DNA of 64,000 bases, taken from contig NZ_BJDZ01000003.1 of assembly GCF_005405405.1 (NCBI RefSeq), positions 1-64,000 on the forward strand, read 5' to 3'. A model generated the notes under the pieces. The model saw only the letters and a program-made list of their open reading frames with translations, searched no databases and was not told the DNA's origin. A program made the position numbers and the translations under genes. Shown here piece by piece: positions 6,001 through 57,021 of this stretch; positions within the stretch are counted from its first letter, which is position 1, and each line of letters opens with the position of its first letter. Source of the DNA: Lactiplantibacillus plajomi. GTDB taxonomy: Bacteria; Bacillota; Bacilli; Lactobacillales; Lactobacillaceae.

Positions 6001-6649
6001 TTTTAAAATCTTATTCGTGCTGATTATCGCCCTCGAGATTTCTTTCACCTCGATCGTCAGCCTGAACGTGGCGTTAATCGTGCTCGCCATCATTTATCTA
6101 CTTGCGCACCGGGTACCGATTAAAACCTTAGCGTGGTTGCTGATTGTGCCGCTAATTCCAGCAATTGGCCTTTGGAGCACCCAGTACATCAACGGCACGG
6201 GGAACAACGACCTGTTTGCTTGGGTCCTCTTCACCCGGATCTACGCCTTCGTCTTCACCGGCGCCGCCTTCACACTAACGACTGACGTTTTGGCCTTAGC
6301 CGACTCGCTAGAACAAAACTGCCACCTACCGGCCAAATTCGCGTACGGGGTCCTGGCCGCTTATAACTTGGCACCACGGATCAAACACGAGGTGCAGGTC
6401 ATCCGCGCCGCCGGCTTAATGCGCGGACAGACGCTATCCTTCTGGTCGCCACAACTTTACTTCAAAGCCATTTTAATTTCAATCAACTGGTCACAGAACC
6501 TGGCACAAGCCATGACGTCGCACGGTTTCGTGGAAGACGCGCCGCGCACCCATTTCCGAATAGTGCGGGTCCACACCAAGGACTGGCTATTACTAATTGG
6601 TGGCATTCTTTTATTACAAGTCGGGATTTTCTTAGTCCCGTGGCGTTAA
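5990..6649 (+). CDS. ykoC: EcfT-type transmembrane component YkoC
   Basis: 219-residue membrane protein with about five helices. Two charged cytoplasmic segments (AAGLMRGQTLSFW and the region around MTSHGFVEDA) correspond to the coupling helices with which EcfT proteins contact the ATPases. The start is the ATG at 5990 with GGGGG upstream; the open frame extends five codons further upstream. Last gene of ykoEDC, followed by a strong terminator. Confidence 0.9.
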   Translation: MNPSFKILFVLIIALEISFTSIVSLNVALIVLAIIYLLAHRVPIKTLAWLLIVPLIPAIGLWSTQYINGTGNNDLFAWVLFTRIYAFVFTGAAFTLTTDVLALADSLEQNCHLPAKFAYGVLAAYNLAPRIKHEVQVIRAAGLMRGQTLSFWSPQLYFKAILISINWSQNLAQAMTSHGFVEDAPRTHFRIVRVHTKDWLLLIGGILLLQVGIFLVPWR

Positions 6650-6652
6650 CCT

Positions 6653-6703
6653 AAAAGCGGTGCCCCCCGTCCTTCAACTCGGACGGGGGGTACCGCTTTT
6701 TAG
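6653..6703. terminator. Bidirectional terminator between ykoC and the ABC-F gene
   Basis: Long perfect stem AAAAGCGGTGCCCCCCGTCC with its complement, flanked by A on one side and T on the other, located between two converging genes. Confidence 0.9.
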
Positions 6704-6705
6704 CA

Positions 6706-8226
6706 TTATTTTTTTGCCGCATCAATTTGGCGTTTCAAAGCCTGTAAGTCAGCAGACTGGGCGTTAGGATCCTGCACCAACTGGTCATACTTAAATTGCA
6801 ATAGTGCGAGGTCCGCCGTTGCAGCTTTTGCCGGCATTGCCCGGGTTGCGGGGTTCGTAATTTGCCGGTCTTTGATCACCAGTGTTTGATTCGTGACGGC
6901 TTGCCGAAACGACGCGTCGTGCGACACAAATAGCACCGTTCCCGGATAAGCTTTGAGGTAGGCCGCCAGCGCGTCCAACGCGTCCACGTCTAAATAGTTA
7001 GTCGGTTCATCCAGCATTAAGACGTTATAATGCCCTACTAAAATTCGGACTAATTGCAGCTTAACCAGCTCACCACCACTGAGTTCAGCGACCAGTTGAT
7101 CGTAAAACCGTGCGGGCAGGCCCAGCGCACCCATGACGTTCCGCAGGGTTTGGTCGGGTAACTGGCTAGCTTGCCGCACCGTTTGCCAAACACGGCGTTG
7201 TTGGTCTAAAACCGTCATGTCCTGATTAAAAACGCCGACCTTGGCGCCGGGAGCTAACGACAGTCCGGACGTCTGACCAGCCATGATTGCCCGTAACAGG
7301 GTGGTTTTACCACTCCCGTTAGCACCGGTAATGGCCACCCGACTACCGGGTTGAATCGTAAACGTGCCGTCGCGAAAAATGAGCTGACCGTGTGCCCGTA
7401 ACGTGACGTGCAGTGCCGTCACCACGTTTTTACCCGTAAACGCCGGAAAATCCGTTGCTACCAGCTTAAACCCAGCCGTGGTAAACGGCTTGGCAACGGT
7501 AGCTTCCCGCTGACCGCGCTTGACCAACGCCTTCGCCCCGCGGTCCATTTTAGCCGCGGTGGTTTCGCGGAGCGTCCGTGAGTTACTCCGTTCCGCCGGG
7601 GTCATCCGGCGACTGCCCTTACGAATGCGATTAGCCTTTTCGTGGCGGGCTTGAACCGCTACTTGCAACTCCCGCTGGTGCTTCACTTGTTGCCGGTAGG
7701 CCGTGGTCTGGGTCGCGTAGTCGCGTTGGCGCACCTCATGATAGGCCGTATAGTTGCCCGGGTAAGCGTGGAATTGTTGTTGATCGACCGCCCAAATGGT
7801 GGTGGCCACCGCGTCTAATAATTGCCGGTCGTGTGAGATCAACAGTAATAGGCCGTGGTAACGGCGCAGTTGTTGCGCGAGCCACTGCTGGTACGCTTCA
7901 TCTAAGTTAGAAGACGGCTCATCTAAAATCAAAATTGCGGGTCGTTGACTTAGTGCGGTTCGAATGCGCGCCAACATTGCTTGACCACCACTCTGATCGA
8001 TTGTCGGCGCGATTTGTGGGACGTACACGACCGCCGCGTCAGCAATCAGTTGACCACTAAAATCCGGGTCGGTTCCCGCTATCATGTGGGCTAGCGTTGA
8101 TTTACCAGCCCCGTTACGACCGACAATACCAACCCGCGCACCGCTCGTGGCCGTTAAGCGGTCGATTTTAAACAGTAACCGACCGGCCACCAATTTTTCA
8201 ATTGCTTGTAAAGTTAATTCTGCCAT
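6706..8226 (-). CDS. ABC-F family ATPase, likely ribosome protection or translation factor
   Basis: 506 residues, two ABC domains in one chain and no membrane segment. Domain 1: Walker A GRNGAGKST, signature QSGGQ, Walker B ILILDEPSSNLD. Domain 2: Walker A GANGSGKTT, signature LSGGE, Walker B VLMLDEPTNYLD. A basic interdomain linker (about 170-240) is the part that reaches the peptidyl-transferase centre in ABC-F proteins. The first domain is shortened between Walker A and signature, as in Msr/Vga/Lsa-type resistance proteins. The substrate antibiotic, if any, cannot be told. An attenuator-like leader with a tiny upstream ORF precedes it, which favours antibiotic-induced expression. Confidence 0.9.
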   Translation of the reverse strand: MAELTLQAIEKLVAGRLLFKIDRLTATSGARVGIVGRNGAGKSTLAHMIAGTDPDFSGQLIADAAVVYVPQIAPTIDQSGGQAMLARIRTALSQRPAILILDEPSSNLDEAYQQWLAQQLRRYHGLLLLISHDRQLLDAVATTIWAVDQQQFHAYPGNYTAYHEVRQRDYATQTTAYRQQVKHQRELQVAVQARHEKANRIRKGSRRMTPAERSNSRTLRETTAAKMDRGAKALVKRGQREATVAKPFTTAGFKLVATDFPAFTGKNVVTALHVTLRAHGQLIFRDGTFTIQPGSRVAITGANGSGKTTLLRAIMAGQTSGLSLAPGAKVGVFNQDMTVLDQQRRVWQTVRQASQLPDQTLRNVMGALGLPARFYDQLVAELSGGELVKLQLVRILVGHYNVLMLDEPTNYLDVDALDALAAYLKAYPGTVLFVSHDASFRQAVTNQTLVIKDRQITNPATRAMPAKAATADLALLQFKYDQLVQDPNAQSADLQALKRQIDAAKK

Positions 8227-48692: not shown

Positions 48693-50207
48693 TTACTTCA
48701 CGTACTTCGCAACTTGGGTCCCGGCTTGGCGACCAAAGATAACGATTTCCGCAACGGAGTTCCCACCGATCCGGTTATCACCGTGTAACCCACCGGTGAC
48801 TTCACCCGCAGCGTAGAGCCCTGGAATCGTCTCACCGGACTTCTTCAACACTTCGGTTTGTGGGTTGATCTTAACGCCACCCATCGTGTAGTGGATTCCC
48901 GGTGCAATCTTAATTGCGTAGTACTTCGGCGTCTTCAACTGGTTATCCATCCCGGTCGTCCGCTTGTACTGGCTGTCCTTCTTATTCTTGACATCCTGGT
49001 TCCAAGTCTTAACCGTCGCGTTCAGTTTAGCTGCTGGAACGTCCAACTTCTTCGCTAACGCGTCTAAGCTGTCAGCACCAACCACCATCTTCTTCTTCTG
49101 GTACTGGTTAATGGCCTTGACCCGGTCCTTCACGCCACCGTCAAACAGTACGTAGGCGTACTTCCCGTCCTGCTTATTAATTGCGGCGGAAACTACGTCA
49201 CGGGTGCCCATTTCGTTAGTGAACCGTTGCCCGTTCTTGTTGATCAAAATACCGCCTTCACCACGGACCGCTTCACCGACCAAGTACGGTGGCTTTTGGA
49301 ATACCGTTGGGTGAATCTGAATTTTATCCATTCCAACCGTGTAGCCGCCCAGTGCCGTAATCATCTTAATCCCGTCACCAGTACTCCCTTCTTGGTTGGT
49401 CGTCACGTACTTAGCCAAGTCCGGCCGGTACTTCTTGATCATTGCCTTGCTGGCACCAAAGCCCCCGGTCGTCACAATGACGGCCTTCGAACTAATGGTC
49501 TTGGTCTTATCCTGGTTAAAGGTAACCTTTACGCCATCAACTTTGCCTGACTTTTCGTTGATTTTCGTCACGTCAGCATTAACGTAAATTGGAATGTTAT
49601 TTTTCTTAACGTTCTTGAGCAAGCCGTTCACCAAGTAACCCCCGACTGCGGAACCGTCGGCCGGCCGGTGCGTCCGTTTCACGCTCATCCCACCGGTAAT
49701 CGTCAGGTTCGTCAGCTTGATACCCATACCGTCTAACCAATCCACAGCACTCGCCGAATGGTCAACGAAGAAACGTAACATCTTCTTATCATTAGTCCCG
49801 TGACCACCCTTAAGTGTTTCGTCATAGAACTTATCGTTACTATCCTTAATGCCATCCTTTTTCTGCACGGACGTTTCCGAAGCGTTCATCCCGGAAGATG
49901 CCTTCAAGGTATTCCCCCCGGCTACCGGCATTTTCTCCAAGATAACCGGCTTTAGTCCTTTTTCCTTGGCCGCTAACGCCGCGGACATCCCGGCACCACC
50001 GGCACCCACAACGACCACGTCATACTTCGACTTCAAGTCCGACATCGACGAATATTCCGTCTTAGAGGCCCCGGACGTAACCGCCGTCTTCTTCGCACTA
50101 CTACTGCTACTACTTGCCTTTTTCGTGCTATTCGAATTGCCACAACCACTCAAACTAGCCGCAACCATCGTTAGCGTTGCCACTACTGAAAAAAGTCGGG
50201 TCTTCAT
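48693..50207 (-). CDS. Extracytoplasmic fumarate-reductase-like flavoprotein (lipoprotein)
   Basis: 504 residues. Lipobox LSGCGNSNS near residue 22, then a Ser/Lys-rich linker, then an FAD-binding domain (DVVVVGAGGAGMSAALAAKEKG, about 63-85). Flavocytochrome-c-type active-site region: HPTVFQKPPYLVGEAVRGEGG (read in parts) with the catalytic Arg, and ending AAGEVTGGLHGDNRIGGNS. It would reduce fumarate, urocanate or a related enoate outside the membrane. The FMN_bind domain that carries covalent flavin in many relatives is absent, so its electron donor is unclear. SD AGGGGGA. Confidence 0.88.
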   Translation of the reverse strand: MKTRLFSVVATLTMVAASLSGCGNSNSTKKASSSSSSAKKTAVTSGASKTEYSSMSDLKSKYDVVVVGAGGAGMSAALAAKEKGLKPVILEKMPVAGGNTLKASSGMNASETSVQKKDGIKDSNDKFYDETLKGGHGTNDKKMLRFFVDHSASAVDWLDGMGIKLTNLTITGGMSVKRTHRPADGSAVGGYLVNGLLKNVKKNNIPIYVNADVTKINEKSGKVDGVKVTFNQDKTKTISSKAVIVTTGGFGASKAMIKKYRPDLAKYVTTNQEGSTGDGIKMITALGGYTVGMDKIQIHPTVFQKPPYLVGEAVRGEGGILINKNGQRFTNEMGTRDVVSAAINKQDGKYAYVLFDGGVKDRVKAINQYQKKKMVVGADSLDALAKKLDVPAAKLNATVKTWNQDVKNKKDSQYKRTTGMDNQLKTPKYYAIKIAPGIHYTMGGVKINPQTEVLKKSGETIPGLYAAGEVTGGLHGDNRIGGNSVAEIVIFGRQAGTQVAKYVK

Positions 50208-51203: not shown

Positions 51204-52742
51204 TTAATTTAGAGCGGCGACCATGCCGGCTAAGAAATCTTTGACCGTTCCGACGAAGACTTCTTGGGAAACGGTCATGACGGGGGCGGTCACGTCTTGG
51301 TTGACGGAAAGGACGTGGTGGGCGCCCGCCATGCCGGCTAAGTAGTGTTCGTCGCCGGAAACACCCAGGTTGATGAGTACTTCCGGGGCAATCGTGACGG
51401 CGTTGTCACCAATCTGTTGTTCGACGCTGAATTGTTCTAGCGCGGTCAACGGTTGGGTGACCGCAATTGCGGCACCAATCCACTTGGCGAGTTGTTGTGC
51501 TTGCAACAGGGTGGCCGGTTCGAGGGCGCCCCGTCCTAGGGCAACGACCCGTTTGGCGGTGGCGATACTGCCGACGTTGACCGGAACGTCTTTGGTGAGG
51601 TGCAGCCGTTTGACGACCCGGTGAAGGTCGGATACTTCAATTTGGACCGATTCAACGTGGGCTTTTTCAGTGTTAGCCGGTTCGCTCAGGGTGCTGATGG
51701 CGAAGTCCTTGGCGAGTTCACCCGGGGTACCCATCAAGAAGGGTAAGGTCTGGAGATCGCGGTTGAGAGCCATCAGTGGTGAGCGGTCGTTGTAAGCTAA
51801 GTTACCGATTAATTTAGTGACCGAATTGAGCCGAGCGACGCTGTATTGACTGGCGGTAAAGCCGGTCAACGCGGCGGCTTTCGTAAACGGTAGTTTCAAA
51901 TCGGCTTGGCTGGCGGTTGAGAGTACGTCTAAACCGAGTGAACGACTAAAGGCCAGTAACGGTGTTAGTTGAATCAGCGGTGGTTGTTCCGTGAAAGCTA
52001 ACCGTTGAATTTGTTGACTGGCATTTTCTAACGTTCCGGCACTGACCGCGGCAAGTAAGAATTGACCGACACTTTCAGCCCGTTGGCGCACGGCGATGCC
52101 GCCCCCCAACGCTCCTAACCGGTTGGCGGCGGTCACTTGGACATGATCAAGCGTGAGGTCCGCAATCGTCAGCCCGTGGAGACCGACCGGTGCGAACGGG
52201 CTGGTGACTGTAAGTCCCGGAGCATCCGCCGCAACCAGAAAAGCGTTGACCACGCCCGGTTCCGTTTCCGCCGTAACTAGGTAAGCCGCGGCTAACCCAG
52301 CGTGAATAACGTGACTAACCGTGCCCGTCAGTTGCCAGCCAGCCGGCACAATCTTCGCCGTGAGCGGTGGGTTAACACTAGCTTCCGCTCCTGTTGCGGG
52401 CAGGCCTAACAATTGGAGTGGCGTTAAGTACGTCTGCCACTGCTGGTCGGTTCCGTACGTCACAACGGCATCGGCGACCTGCCACCACGTTGCCAGCAAC
52501 GTTGCTAAACTGGCAGACTGCTGGGCAACCGCTAGTACCGTTAGGGCTTGATCACTCAGCCGACTGCTGCTGGCGGGTAGGCCGGTCTGGGAAATGCTAT
52601 GCTGTTGTAGCGTTTGTAAAACAGTTGTATCGATTGAGCCCGCCGCTTCAACTTTAGTCGTTAGCGGTTGCAATTCATCCGCCAGTAACGTGTTCAACCA
52701 GTGCCAGCGCTGGGCCTGCTTAGCAGTTAAATTCAATTCCAT
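51204..52742 (-). CDS. Fusion of an acyl-CoA-dehydrogenase-like domain and an EtfA C-terminal domain
   Basis: 512 residues. Residues 1 to about 350 follow the acyl-CoA dehydrogenase plan: helical N-domain, beta domain (KIVPAGWQLTGTVSHVIHAG, GVVNAFLVAADAPGL, FAPVGLHGLTIADLTLDHV), helical C-domain. Residues 399-512 follow the FAD domain of electron-transfer flavoprotein alpha: VALGRGALEP, VEQQIGDNAVTIAPEVLINLGVSGDEHYLAGM, VLSVNQDVTAPVM. The ACAD catalytic Glu (YEGT) appears as LMGT (336-339), and EtfA SRP appears as TQP. Start ATG 52742 with GAGGTGAGGA. Single gene; no etfB or thiolase nearby. Function unknown; electron-bifurcation or enoyl reduction is speculation. Confidence 0.75.
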   Translation of the reverse strand: MELNLTAKQAQRWHWLNTLLADELQPLTTKVEAAGSIDTTVLQTLQQHSISQTGLPASSSRLSDQALTVLAVAQQSASLATLLATWWQVADAVVTYGTDQQWQTYLTPLQLLGLPATGAEASVNPPLTAKIVPAGWQLTGTVSHVIHAGLAAAYLVTAETEPGVVNAFLVAADAPGLTVTSPFAPVGLHGLTIADLTLDHVQVTAANRLGALGGGIAVRQRAESVGQFLLAAVSAGTLENASQQIQRLAFTEQPPLIQLTPLLAFSRSLGLDVLSTASQADLKLPFTKAAALTGFTASQYSVARLNSVTKLIGNLAYNDRSPLMALNRDLQTLPFLMGTPGELAKDFAISTLSEPANTEKAHVESVQIEVSDLHRVVKRLHLTKDVPVNVGSIATAKRVVALGRGALEPATLLQAQQLAKWIGAAIAVTQPLTALEQFSVEQQIGDNAVTIAPEVLINLGVSGDEHYLAGMAGAHHVLSVNQDVTAPVMTVSQEVFVGTVKDFLAGMVAALN

Positions 52743-52840
52743 AACGGTCCTCACCTCGATAATTAATTACCTTTAACTTACCACACTTTGATGAATTTGC
52801 CCCTGAAAACTAATGAACGGGGGTTACAACACTGGTCGGC

Positions 52841-53538: not shown

Positions 53539-55158
53539 TTACTGCGCCAGGTCGCGGCGTCGGTAACCAATTGCTGCTAATCCTAATAGTAGCACAGTTA
53601 ACCCCAGGCACCACCAACTGACCGACCAATCAATCGCTTTAACTGGGACCCGGTCAACAAAGCCTAGTGGACTTAGGTGCTGGGCCCACTCCGGCAACGT
53701 TAAAAGGGTCCCGAGGTAGACGGCGAAGAAACTGTACCCGAGCCAGCCCCACGCAAGGTAGCGCCACTTAGGTAACCAGCCCACAAGCAGACTGGCAACG
53801 GCAATCATCACCAGCATGGCCGGCAAGTACGCTAACCAGACGTGCCAGTATGACGCCCAGGCTAACGAGTCGTTCATCGTGATGGCACCCATCACCGCCA
53901 TGCCCGCTAACCCCGCTAGTAAAACGGCTGCGCCGGCCAGCGCGCCCCAGCCCGTATAAGCGGCCCAAACGTGCCACCGTGCCGCGGCGGTCGCGCCAAC
54001 TTGATGTAGGTAACCTTTTTGCTCATCACCAACTAGTTTCAGCGTCAACTGAATGGCGGGAATCAACGCAATAATTACCATCACGATGGCAAGGACCGCC
54101 ACAAAATTTTTCACCACTAAGCGGTTAGCCGCCGCCAGTGCCGAAGTCCCCAGCAGTTGCTTGATCATCGGGTTAGTCTTCGCTAGGTCGCCAATCGTGT
54201 TGAACACTGAGCCGTAAGCCGCACCCAGTACAAAGTTCGCCACCAGCCAGGCGACTAGTCCCCCGCGGGCTTGCCGCCAAACTAAACCGACTGGTCCCCG
54301 TAACCACCAGCTCGCGCGTTGGCGGCCCCGGCGCGTCGCAATTACGCCGGCCCCCAGGTCCCGCCGCAAACGAATAACGATGGCAAGAACGGCTAACAGT
54401 AATCCCAACAATAAGTAGGCCCACACCGGCGCCCAGTCATTGGCCTGGTAAGCACTAATTTTTTCAACCCAACCAAACGGGACCCACCACGTTAGCTGCG
54501 GGTCACTAACGTCGGTACTCATTCGCAACACAAATAGCAAGCCTAAAACGGCAAAGCTTAGCCGGCTAGTTCCACCGGCACTGTCCGCTAGTTGCGCCAT
54601 GACGAGCGTCAGCATCCCGAACGCCCAGCCCACCGCAGCCAGACCGAAACCAATCAGCCAGTTACCCGTCGAATCGGCGCCCGGCATCGCCGCCAGTTGC
54701 AGGCCGAGGCCGTAGCCGCACCCTAAAATCAAGTTTAGTCCCGTTAATTCAACAATGGCGGCTAGTAACGGCGCCCCGCGTCCAACCGCGTGGGCGGTCA
54801 CTAATTCGGTTAAGCCGGCGTCTTCGTCATGACGGGTGGCCCGTACGCCGATGATCACGTTCATAATGACCATAAACAACGCCATAAAGACCAACATTTC
54901 GGCTGCAAATACTGCTGCCGTTGTGTACGGTGGCTTAGCCGTCATCGGTCCAAATAGGGCGACCATTGCGGGGGTTTTTAACGTTTTGACGATTTCATTA
55001 AGCGCCCGCTGGCTGCCGTAAATCTGGTCGAACTTGGCGGCCACCGCCGTCATCAAGCCTGCCAATACGACGCACCACAAAACCAGTTGGGTCCAATCGC
55101 GGCGTAAGTTAAGCTTGACCAACGCACTGGTACGTGTAAACCACTTCGTTAACGTCAT
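53539..55158 (-). CDS. ABC exporter permease, polyketide-antibiotic exporter type
   Basis: 539 residues with twelve or so hydrophobic helices in two halves, each beginning with a short charged segment (LVKLNLRRDWTQLVLW and GLVWRQARGGLVAW). This is the layout of the large single-chain permeases annotated as exporters of polyketide antibiotics (COG3559). The start is ATG 55158 behind GGGAAGTGA; a GTG overlapping the upstream stop (GTGA) is an alternative. Partner of the ATPase just upstream. Confidence 0.88.
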   Translation of the reverse strand: MTLTKWFTRTSALVKLNLRRDWTQLVLWCVVLAGLMTAVAAKFDQIYGSQRALNEIVKTLKTPAMVALFGPMTAKPPYTTAAVFAAEMLVFMALFMVIMNVIIGVRATRHDEDAGLTELVTAHAVGRGAPLLAAIVELTGLNLILGCGYGLGLQLAAMPGADSTGNWLIGFGLAAVGWAFGMLTLVMAQLADSAGGTSRLSFAVLGLLFVLRMSTDVSDPQLTWWVPFGWVEKISAYQANDWAPVWAYLLLGLLLAVLAIVIRLRRDLGAGVIATRRGRQRASWWLRGPVGLVWRQARGGLVAWLVANFVLGAAYGSVFNTIGDLAKTNPMIKQLLGTSALAAANRLVVKNFVAVLAIVMVIIALIPAIQLTLKLVGDEQKGYLHQVGATAAARWHVWAAYTGWGALAGAAVLLAGLAGMAVMGAITMNDSLAWASYWHVWLAYLPAMLVMIAVASLLVGWLPKWRYLAWGWLGYSFFAVYLGTLLTLPEWAQHLSPLGFVDRVPVKAIDWSVSWWCLGLTVLLLGLAAIGYRRRDLAQ

Positions 55159-55163
55159 TCGGC

Positions 55164-56078
55164 TCACTTCCCATCTACTGCTTGGTCGGCGCCTTGGTAA
55201 TAGCGCATGAACAAGTCTTCCAACGTCGGCGGCGTAGTTGTCAGTGCCACGAGCCCCTTCTCAGTTAGGAACGCCATAATGGCCGTCAACTGATCCGCGT
55301 CCACCGCAAAGGTCACGTGGTGATCAGTTTCGACGGTTACCCCGTGAACCCCGGCTAGTGCCGCCACGTCCGTAACCGGTGCCGTTGTTTGCACATCAAC
55401 CGTTGTGCGGGTCAGGTGCCGCATGTCGGCCAGGGTACCCGTTTCAACGATGCGCCCCTCACGAATAATGCCAATGCGATCACACATTTTTTCCACCTCG
55501 GATAAGATATGACTCGACAATAACACGCTCTTCCCACGCGCTTTTAATGCAAGTACTTCCGCCTGAAAAGTCTGCTCGTTGAGCGGGTCTAAACCCGAAG
55601 TTGGTTCATCAAAAATGTAAAAGTCGGCGTCCATTGAAAATGCCGCGATTAAGGCCACCTTCTGCCGATTCCCTTTTGAATACGTCCGCGCCTTTTTCCG
55701 CGGATCCAAGCCGAACTTTTTAATCAGCGTCTCCGTTTTGTCGCTATGCCGATCACCATTTAGTCGCAAAAACATATCGATAATTTCGCCACCACTCATA
55801 TTCGGCCACAGGGTGACGTCGCCAGGAACGTAGGCGATGCGGCGATGAATCGCCACGCTATCACGCCAAACATCCTGACCAAAGAGCGTCGCCTGCCCAC
55901 CACTCGCGCGAATTAGCCCTAATAAGATGCGAATTGTCGTTGATTTACCGGCCCCGTTGGGACCAATAAAACCAAAAACTTCGCCGGGGTAAATTTTAAA
56001 ATCCACGTCGGTTAACGCGTGAAATTGACCAAACTTTTTTTGTAAATGGTGCACATTTAATAATGGTGCTTGTGCCAT
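55164..56078 (-). CDS. ABC exporter ATPase
   Basis: 304 residues. Walker A GPNGAGKST, signature YSKGNRQKV in place of LSGGQ (usual for this exporter class), Walker B YIFDEPTSGLDPL, switch His in LLSSHILSEVEK. The C-terminal 80 residues form the small regulatory domain of DrrA/CcmA-type ATPases. Start ATG 56078 with TAGGAG; the open frame begins three codons earlier at a GTG. First gene of the exporter operon; its stop codon overlaps the permease start region. Confidence 0.92.
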   Translation of the reverse strand: MAQAPLLNVHHLQKKFGQFHALTDVDFKIYPGEVFGFIGPNGAGKSTTIRILLGLIRASGGQATLFGQDVWRDSVAIHRRIAYVPGDVTLWPNMSGGEIIDMFLRLNGDRHSDKTETLIKKFGLDPRKKARTYSKGNRQKVALIAAFSMDADFYIFDEPTSGLDPLNEQTFQAEVLALKARGKSVLLSSHILSEVEKMCDRIGIIREGRIVETGTLADMRHLTRTTVDVQTTAPVTDVAALAGVHGVTVETDHHVTFAVDADQLTAIMAFLTEKGLVALTTTPPTLEDLFMRYYQGADQAVDGK

Positions 56079-56174
56079 ACCGCTCACTCCTAACCCGTTT
56101 TATTTGAATTCAGCACTATCATAATCATTGTTGACCAGAAAGTCAATGACTGGCGAGTCAATTCTTGAGTTAAT

Positions 56175-56203
56175 AAAAACACCCGCCATAATCCGGGTGT
56201 TTG
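56175..56203 (-). terminator. Terminator of the SDR gene
   Basis: AACACCCGGAT / ATGGCGGGTGTT stem with TTTTTA on the minus strand. Confidence 0.8.
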
Positions 56204-56226
56204 CTAAGTAATCAAACTTATTCACG

Positions 56227-57021
56227 TTAATAAATCGTCGGGACGAGGCCGCCATCCGCCCGAATGGCCGCACCCGAAAAGCTGCTAGCTAGCGGACTGG
56301 CAACGAAGACCGTCAGCCGGCCGATTTCTTCCGGCCGAATCAGCCGTTGGATTTGCGACAACGGCCGGTGGTGAACCATAAAATCATGTTCCCAGGCTTC
56401 TCGTGGTAACTCGGAATCCGCGTACATCGTGTCTAACATCTGCTGAACCCCTTCCGTTAAGGTCGAACCGGGCATAATCGTGTTAATCGTCACGTGACTA
56501 CCAACAGTTAACTTCGATAAACTCTTCGCCAAGGATAGGTTCATCGTCTTGGTCATTGAATACTGGGGCATTTCCCCAGACGGCATGATGGCTTCTTCGC
56601 TCGCAATAAAAATGATCCGACCAAAATCGTTGGCCAACATCGCGGGTAGGTAGTGCTTGGCTAAGCGGTTACCCGCCAACACGTTAACGTTAAAAAAGTG
56701 TTCCCAGGTGGCATCATCAATCTCGGCGTACGCCATCGGCTTAAAAATTCCCATATTATTAACTAAAATATCAACCGTGGGCACCCGTTCAAACAGCGCG
56801 GTGGCTTGGTCGGGGTCACTAATATCAAACGGTGCGGCTAACGGGGTCGTTGCTGGGTAATCGCTGGCAAGCTGGTCAACGACTGCTTGAACCGTGGTCG
56901 CACTCCGCCCGTTAATCACCACGTCCGCGCCCTCTTGCGCAAAGGCCGTGGCAATGGCGCGGCCGATTCCCTTAGTGGAGCCGGTCACCAATACCCGTTT
57001 ATGGGCTAATTGCATTTCCAT
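56227..57021 (-). CDS. Short-chain dehydrogenase/reductase
   Basis: 264 residues, classical SDR. NAD(P) loop VTGSTKGIGRAIATAF, NNMGIF (the NNAG motif with Met), catalytic Ser in IFIASEEAIMPS-like region and YxxxK in QYSMTKTMN. The C-terminal part (GAAIRADGGLVPTIY) fits the FabG-like group. Substrate unknown. Start is ATG 57021 or, two codons on, ATG 57015; the SD GGAGG lies 12 bases before the first. Single gene with the palindrome TATTTCCCGGGAAATA about 85 bases upstream. Confidence 0.9.
   Translation of the reverse strand: MEMQLAHKRVLVTGSTKGIGRAIATAFAQEGADVVINGRSATTVQAVVDQLASDYPATTPLAAPFDISDPDQATALFERVPTVDILVNNMGIFKPMAYAEIDDATWEHFFNVNVLAGNRLAKHYLPAMLANDFGRIIFIASEEAIMPSGEMPQYSMTKTMNLSLAKSLSKLTVGSHVTINTIMPGSTLTEGVQQMLDTMYADSELPREAWEHDFMVHHRPLSQIQRLIRPEEIGRLTVFVASPLASSFSGAAIRADGGLVPTIY

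What the first reader, a model, noticed from the sequence alone, without database searches (positions are those of the whole stretch)
51204..52742. Acyl-CoA-dehydrogenase/EtfA fusion in a fermentative bacterium
Seen: an ACAD-like body joined to an EtfA FAD domain in one 512-aa chain, with the ACAD base Glu (YEGT) read as LMGT and EtfA SRP read as TQP. Known: ACADs pass electrons to a separate EtfAB heterodimer, and lactobacilli lack beta-oxidation. Inference: a self-contained two-flavin redox protein with changed chemistry. No etfB or acyl-CoA genes are near.
Basis: partly seen in the sequence, partly recalled or inferred. Interest (0 to 1): 0.65.

Follow-up and report, generated by a model that had tools for sequence, protein, structure and literature searches.

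The report
Eroded dehydrogenase fused to EtfA half
Every sequenced Lactiplantibacillus species checked carries one gene in which a former acyl-CoA dehydrogenase is joined to half of its old electron-carrier partner; in the window's lineage the dehydrogenase active site has been lost while the carrier half stays strongly conserved, so the gene appears to have a new, unknown job.

Summary
The fusion is real (window 51204-52742, minus strand, 512 aa): an ACAD-fold body (1 to about 345) joined to the FAD domain (domain II) of EtfA (about 365-512). EtfA domain I and EtfB are missing. It is in 21 of 21 Lactiplantibacillus species. Fifteen of those have no EtfB gene and none has a rubredoxin. Low dN/dS shows it is functional. 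Basal species keep the catalytic Glu (AEGS), the TEP motif, the FAD-type motifs and the EtfA Arg (TRP); the plantarum/window lineage has lost them. Both halves are closest to Lactobacillales ACAD-EtfB-EtfA operons, and AU tests reject a common clade with the known ACAD-EtfA-rubredoxin fusion of Fusobacterium and Clostridia (BCR of BOOR). This is therefore an independent fusion, best explained by in-frame loss of etfB plus EtfA domain I, followed by stepwise erosion of the ACAD site. Constraint is inverted: the ACAD half averages 38% identity against 69% for the EtfA half; in the operons it is 63% against 52%. Most likely it is an ACAD pseudoenzyme scaffold carrying an EtfA-type FAD/nucleotide module, not an acyl-CoA dehydrogenase. 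Biochemical function is unknown.

The parts
51204..52742 (-). ACAD/EtfA fusion gene, 512 aa
   Evidence: Open frame; orthologue in 21/21 Lactiplantibacillus genomes over residues 1-512; dN/dS 0.00-0.10
51708..52742 (-). Residues 1 to about 345: ACAD-fold body with eroded active site
   Evidence: Pfam ACAD N/M/C weak matches; PDB fold match to ACADs, TM about 0.83; 27 of 65 ACAD-conserved columns kept against 46-49 in basal orthologues
51732..51734 (-). Met337 codon, at the position of the catalytic Glu (YEGT/AEGS) of relatives
   Evidence: Alignment: E in L029-L031 and L033, D in L034/L035, M/V/T/L elsewhere
51207..51650 (-). Residues about 365-512: EtfA domain II (FAD domain); EtfA domain I absent
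   Evidence: PF00766 E 5.6e-18, no PF01012; profile search of PDB finds only EtfA chains; fold match to EtfA
51453..51455 (-). Gln430 codon, at the position of the flavin-tuning Arg of EtfA (SRP to TQP)
   Evidence: Arg kept in basal orthologues (TRP)
52772..52785 (-). Conserved promoter-like motif TGTGGTAAGTTAAA (extended -10 type), starting 43 nt upstream of the ATG
   Evidence: Present at -43 to -52 in 18/21 orthologues; the only occurrence in the own genome
52881..53570 (-). TetR-family regulator, gene upstream of the fusion in 20/21 species
   Evidence: Pfam TetR_N; synteny. Its likely operator (TTGACT...AGTCAA) lies before the ABC genes, not before the fusion
53539..56087 (-). ABC exporter permease and ATPase genes, usually upstream of the TetR gene
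   Evidence: PF00005 for the ATPase; no Pfam hit for the permease; synteny
48693..50207 (-). Lipoprotein flavocytochrome-c / fumarate-reductase-like flavoprotein; downstream neighbour in 10/21 species only
   Evidence: NCBIfam NF005064 E 2e-260; synteny

Best explanation
The gene descends from a Lactobacillales acd-etfB-etfA operon that lost etfB and the first domain of etfA, fusing the ACAD directly to EtfA domain II in the ancestor of Lactiplantibacillus. In basal species the ACAD site is still largely present. In the lineage holding L. plantarum and the window species it has been dismantled, so the ACAD half is now a pseudoenzyme: a folded, probably oligomeric scaffold that no longer oxidises acyl-CoA. 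The working part is the conserved EtfA-type module, which most likely binds one FAD (or its ADP part). It acts either as a single-flavin electron relay to an unidentified partner or as a flavin/nucleotide-dependent binding or regulatory protein. Shown: fusion, closest relatives of both halves, loss of residues, purifying selection, independence from EtfB and rubredoxin. Inferred: the deletion route, FAD binding by the EtfA half, loss of catalysis, and the relay or binding role.
For: Fold and domains. 21/21 fusion against 6/21 EtfB. No rubredoxin in the genus and no ODP flavodiiron domain in the own genome. Both halves hit Lactobacillales operon proteins best: ACAD 1e-80 and EtfA 3e-36, against 5e-44 and 7e-18 for BCR. 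The operon order ACAD-EtfB-EtfA is collinear with the fusion. AU tests reject fusion+BCR, p 0.0004 and 0.0006. Graded loss: 46-49, 37-39, then 22-31 of 65 ACAD-conserved columns. Inverted constraint: 38/69% against 63/52% identity. dN/dS 0.02-0.10 for the ACAD half and 0.00-0.04 for the EtfA half in close pairs.
Against: The EtfA half has also lost flavin-tuning positions (Arg to Gln; QSG to DNA), and in one species (G008) it is eroded too (11 of 24 columns), so FAD binding there is unproven. The ACAD half keeps dN/dS at or below 0.1, so it does more than fill space. No partner is visible from synteny. The union of fusion and operon rows is only moderately supported (78/74 ACAD, 94/91 EtfA).
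Confidence: 0.5

Rival explanations
1. Non-redox pseudoenzyme: neither site holds flavin; the protein is a scaffold or a sensor of CoA or nucleotide ligands.
For: Flavin-proximal residues are lost in both halves; the conserved patches (LHRVVK..LT..VPVNVGS..TAKR, QLAKWIGAA) lie largely outside the flavin-tuning motifs.
Against: GRG, SG, VN.D and AP motifs of the EtfA domain, where the nucleotide part of FAD is expected, are kept in nearly all species; the fold is intact.
Confidence: 0.3
2. Self-contained two-flavin redox enzyme, with a different base and altered flavin potentials.
For: Both folds are present; basal orthologues keep the Glu, TEP and R/Q/G motifs.
Against: In the window lineage most of the conserved ACAD columns in known active-site motifs are changed and the R..FG region is deleted; no alternative Glu at the helix-G position.
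Confidence: 0.1
3. It pairs with EtfB (or the whole Etf) of the separate acyl-CoA operon on the same contig.
For: That operon exists about 23 kb away in this genome.
Against: 15 of 21 species have the fusion but no EtfB; EtfA domain I is missing; EtfB presence does not follow retention of the Glu.
Confidence: 0.04
4. A BOOR-like acyl-CoA:O2 oxidoreductase, as in Fusobacterium.
For: Same ACAD-EtfA(II) order as BCR.
Against: No rubredoxin in any of 21 genomes; no ODP flavodiiron domain in the own genome; catalytic Glu lost; separate ancestry.
Confidence: 0.03
5. A decaying gene on its way out.
For: Fast divergence of the ACAD half.
Against: Intact frame in 21/21 species; dN/dS 0.00-0.10; conserved promoter motif.
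Confidence: 0.03

Closest known systems
BCR subunit of butyryl-CoA oxygen oxidoreductase (BOOR), Fusobacterium nucleatum and many Firmicutes (PMC12288474; Bystrom and Wolthers 2024 as cited there)
   Same: One chain with an ACAD followed by the C-terminal FAD domain of EtfA, no EtfA domain I and no EtfB
   Different: BCR ends in rubredoxin, sits beside a flavodiiron protein gene and keeps the active-site Glu; the Lactiplantibacillus fusion lacks the first two, has lost the Glu in this lineage, and is rejected as the same clade for both halves
ACAD-EtfB-EtfA three-gene operons of other Lactobacillales (several families)
   Same: Closest sequence relatives of both halves, same gene order, AEGS/AEGT motif as in basal fusions
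   Different: Three separate proteins with full EtfAB; no close copy of this operon among the matches in the 21 Lactiplantibacillus genomes
Bcd-EtfAB / CarCDE / acryloyl-CoA reductase complexes (e.g. PDB 5ol2, 6fah)
   Same: EtfA domain II works next to the ACAD in those complexes (general knowledge); the fusion could fix that contact (inference)
   Different: No EtfB flavin, no EtfA domain I, ACAD active site lost in this lineage

Membership tests
Acyl-CoA dehydrogenase (functional) | ACAD fold | tested here: met
   Foldseek to ACADs E about 1e-20, TM about 0.83
Acyl-CoA dehydrogenase (functional) | Catalytic Glu (YEGT position or helix-G position) | tested here: not met
   Met337 and Gly226; met in basal orthologues
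Acyl-CoA dehydrogenase (functional) | FAD-site motifs (TEP, ITN, R..FG, QI.GG) | tested here: not met
   Replaced or deleted in the window protein
EtfA | Domain II (PF00766) fold and sequence | tested here: met
EtfA | Domain I (PF01012) and EtfB partner | tested here: not met
   No PF01012 in the protein; EtfB absent from 15/21 genomes with the fusion
EtfA | Bound FAD | not testable with these tools
   Only residue retention could be judged: 15 of 24 conserved columns kept, flavin-tuning Arg lost
BCR/BOOR | ACAD-EtfA(II) fusion | tested here: met
BCR/BOOR | C-terminal rubredoxin and flavodiiron partner | tested here: not met
   No PF00301 in 21 genomes; no PF19583 in the own genome
BCR/BOOR | Common ancestry of the fusion | tested here: not met
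   AU p 0.0004 (ACAD half) and 0.0006 (EtfA half)

The most novel reading that the evidence does not exclude
A genus-wide core protein in which an ETF-linked dehydrogenase has been recast stepwise, within one genus, into a pseudoenzyme carrying an orphan EtfA flavin domain that works without EtfB: a new EtfB-free way of using the EtfA domain, with all evolutionary stages still living.
Probability: 0.45. Interest if true: 0.7.

Novelty: new variant of a known kind. Interest (0 to 1): 0.52.

Why it matters
It is a core, selected gene of the widely used species L. plantarum and its genus, and no paper assigning it a function was found. The genus holds a graded series from near-intact to fully eroded active site in orthologous, mostly syntenic genes, so loss of enzyme activity with retention of an electron-carrier domain can be tested directly. 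It is also a second, independent invention of the ACAD-EtfA(II) fusion, which suggests that the EtfA FAD domain can work without EtfB more generally.

Tried and rejected
Common origin with Fusobacterium/Clostridia BCR: rejected by AU tests on both halves. EtfB of the nearby operon as obligatory partner: rejected by distribution. Rubredoxin/flavodiiron exit: no genes. Pseudogene: dN/dS and conservation. TetR control of the fusion: the shared TTGACT...AGTCAA operator-like repeat is before the ABC operon, not before the fusion; only in G018/G019 do TetR and the fusion lie about 6 nt apart. Flavocytochrome-like neighbour as dedicated partner: adjacent in only 10/21 species, and its N-terminus looks like a lipoprotein signal, so it is probably outside the cell. 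Literature: four searches aimed at this gene in L. plantarum/Lactiplantibacillus gave no paper on it; the locus tags lp_0160-lp_0163 were guessed from memory and found nothing relevant. The promoter/terminator scan listed no promoter at the conserved motif; terminator-like hairpins on both sides of the gene are seen only by eye.

Full report
What is there. The frame at 51204-52742 on the minus strand is intact and encodes 512 aa. Pfam gives ETF_alpha, the EtfA FAD domain, at residues 393-471 with E 5.6e-18, and weak, sub-threshold matches to all three ACAD domains; PF01012 (EtfA domain I / EtfB) is absent. AlphaFold2 with 12 Lactiplantibacillus sequences gives a whole-chain model (pLDDT 78, pTM 0.66) whose body matches ACADs of the PDB (E 2e-20, target-normalised TM about 0.83). 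The last 152 residues modelled alone (pLDDT 85, pTM 0.85) match EtfA chains (1efp E 2.5e-10), and a sequence profile of this part finds only EtfA chains in the PDB.

Distribution. All 21 Lactiplantibacillus genomes searched carry the full-length fusion. In 201 Lactobacillaceae genomes, every PF00766 match outside the genus lies in a frame of 419 aa or less, so no fused copy was seen there. EtfB/PF01012 occurs in only 6 of the 21, rubredoxin in none, and the ODP flavodiiron domain is not found in the own genome. In this genome EtfBA belong to a separate operon at C3 73-81 kb with two complete ACADs, a family III CoA transferase, an AMP-binding ligase and a thioesterase.

Origin. Other Lactobacillales carry a three-gene operon ACAD-EtfB-EtfA, and these are the best relatives of both halves of the basal fusion (ACAD about 36% identity, E 1e-80; EtfA domain II 42-50% identity, E 3e-36), far ahead of the Fusobacterium/Clostridia BCR (E 5e-44 and 7e-18). 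In the trees fusion plus operon rows form one side of a branch (support 78/74 for ACAD, 94/91 for EtfA). Forcing fusion plus BCR together is rejected (AU p 0.0004 and 0.0006; the tree program warned of long branches). The simplest route is in-frame loss of etfB and of EtfA domain I; this route is inference from collinearity. BCR of F. nucleatum, a characterised ACAD-EtfA C-terminus-rubredoxin protein working with a flavodiiron protein on O2 (PMC12288474), is thus a convergent architecture.

Erosion series. Of 65 columns conserved in at least 90% of 21 reference ACADs (stand-alone and BCR), basal fusions (mudanjiangensis/daowaiensis group and G019) keep 46-49, the daoliensis group 37-39, and the plantarum/window group 22-31. 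The Glu is E in the first group (AEGS), D in G018/G019, T in the daoliensis group and M/V/T/L in the last. The TEP motif, the Arg of R..FG, Gln336 and Gly340 are likewise lost in the plantarum/window group, which also has a deletion of about 10 aa around R..FG. The Arg of the EtfA SRP motif is kept in the basal group (TRP) and lost elsewhere.

Selection. In close pairs dN/dS is 0.02-0.10 in the ACAD half and 0.00-0.04 in the EtfA half (several more distant pairs are saturated at silent sites and were not used). Mean pairwise identity across the genus is 38% (ACAD half) and 69% (EtfA half), the reverse of the operon proteins (63% and 52%). The protein is functional and its constraint has moved to the EtfA half. 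An exception is G008, where the EtfA half is eroded as well (11 of 24 columns).

Surroundings. The most constant neighbour is a TetR gene upstream (20/21; directly adjacent in 14), usually with an ABC exporter pair before it; the flavocytochrome/fumarate-reductase-like lipoprotein follows in 10/21. The fusion has its own conserved promoter-like motif TGTGGTAARTTAGA at -43 to -52 in 18/21 species, which occurs once in this genome. An operator-like repeat TTGACT...AGTCAA is found before the ABC genes but not before the fusion. Basal species have arylsulfotransferase and MFS genes beside the fusion. No partner is fixed by synteny.

Mechanism. Most likely (confidence 0.5) this is an ACAD pseudoenzyme scaffold carrying an EtfA-type FAD/nucleotide module that acts alone as a relay or ligand-dependent protein. 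Rivals are a wholly non-redox scaffold or sensor (0.3) and a true two-flavin enzyme (0.1 here, more likely in basal species). Whether flavin is bound cannot be tested with these tools. EtfA residue roles (Arg249, Thr266, His286 in human numbering) and the IVD helix-G Glu are from general knowledge, not tested here; the His position is already Tyr or Phe in the closest operon EtfA proteins, so its absence is not a change made by the fusion.

Verdict. Real, selected, genus-core, independently evolved; a new variant of a known kind. It is of interest mainly as an unassigned core gene of L. plantarum and as a complete series of active-site loss.

Noticed in passing
L016 (G000:C3 63500-82000), 9530-18423: Operon with MFS transporter, two ACADs, CoA transferase family III, EtfB, EtfA, AMP-binding ligase and thioesterase: an apparently complete caiABC-like acyl-CoA reduction pathway in a Lactiplantibacillus; PF01012 genes occur in 6 of 21 species.
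   Followed up: partly
L163 (G561:C5), 6386-8071: A 561-aa BCR relative (62% identical to Fusobacterium BCR) that lacks rubredoxin and has no flavodiiron gene beside it.
   Followed up: no
L150, L155, L156, L157, L166: The ACAD-EtfB-EtfA operon of several Lactobacillales lies near a Crp/Fnr-type regulator gene (Crp/cNMP domains confirmed by Pfam only in L150), hinting at anaerobic or redox control.
   Followed up: no
window 56088-56230 and the same place in most of 11 related loci: Conserved TTGACT...AGTCAA repeats overlapping the likely promoter of the ABC-exporter/TetR operon: a candidate TetR operator.
   Followed up: partly
L011 9696-11405 and its counterparts in L015, L091 and L092: Arylsulfotransferase (ASST) family gene next to the basal fusions (Pfam-confirmed only in L011).
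   Followed up: no
plasmid collection: Thirteen Latilactobacillus plasmid records hold a protein-level match to the query; which half matches was not examined.
   Followed up: no
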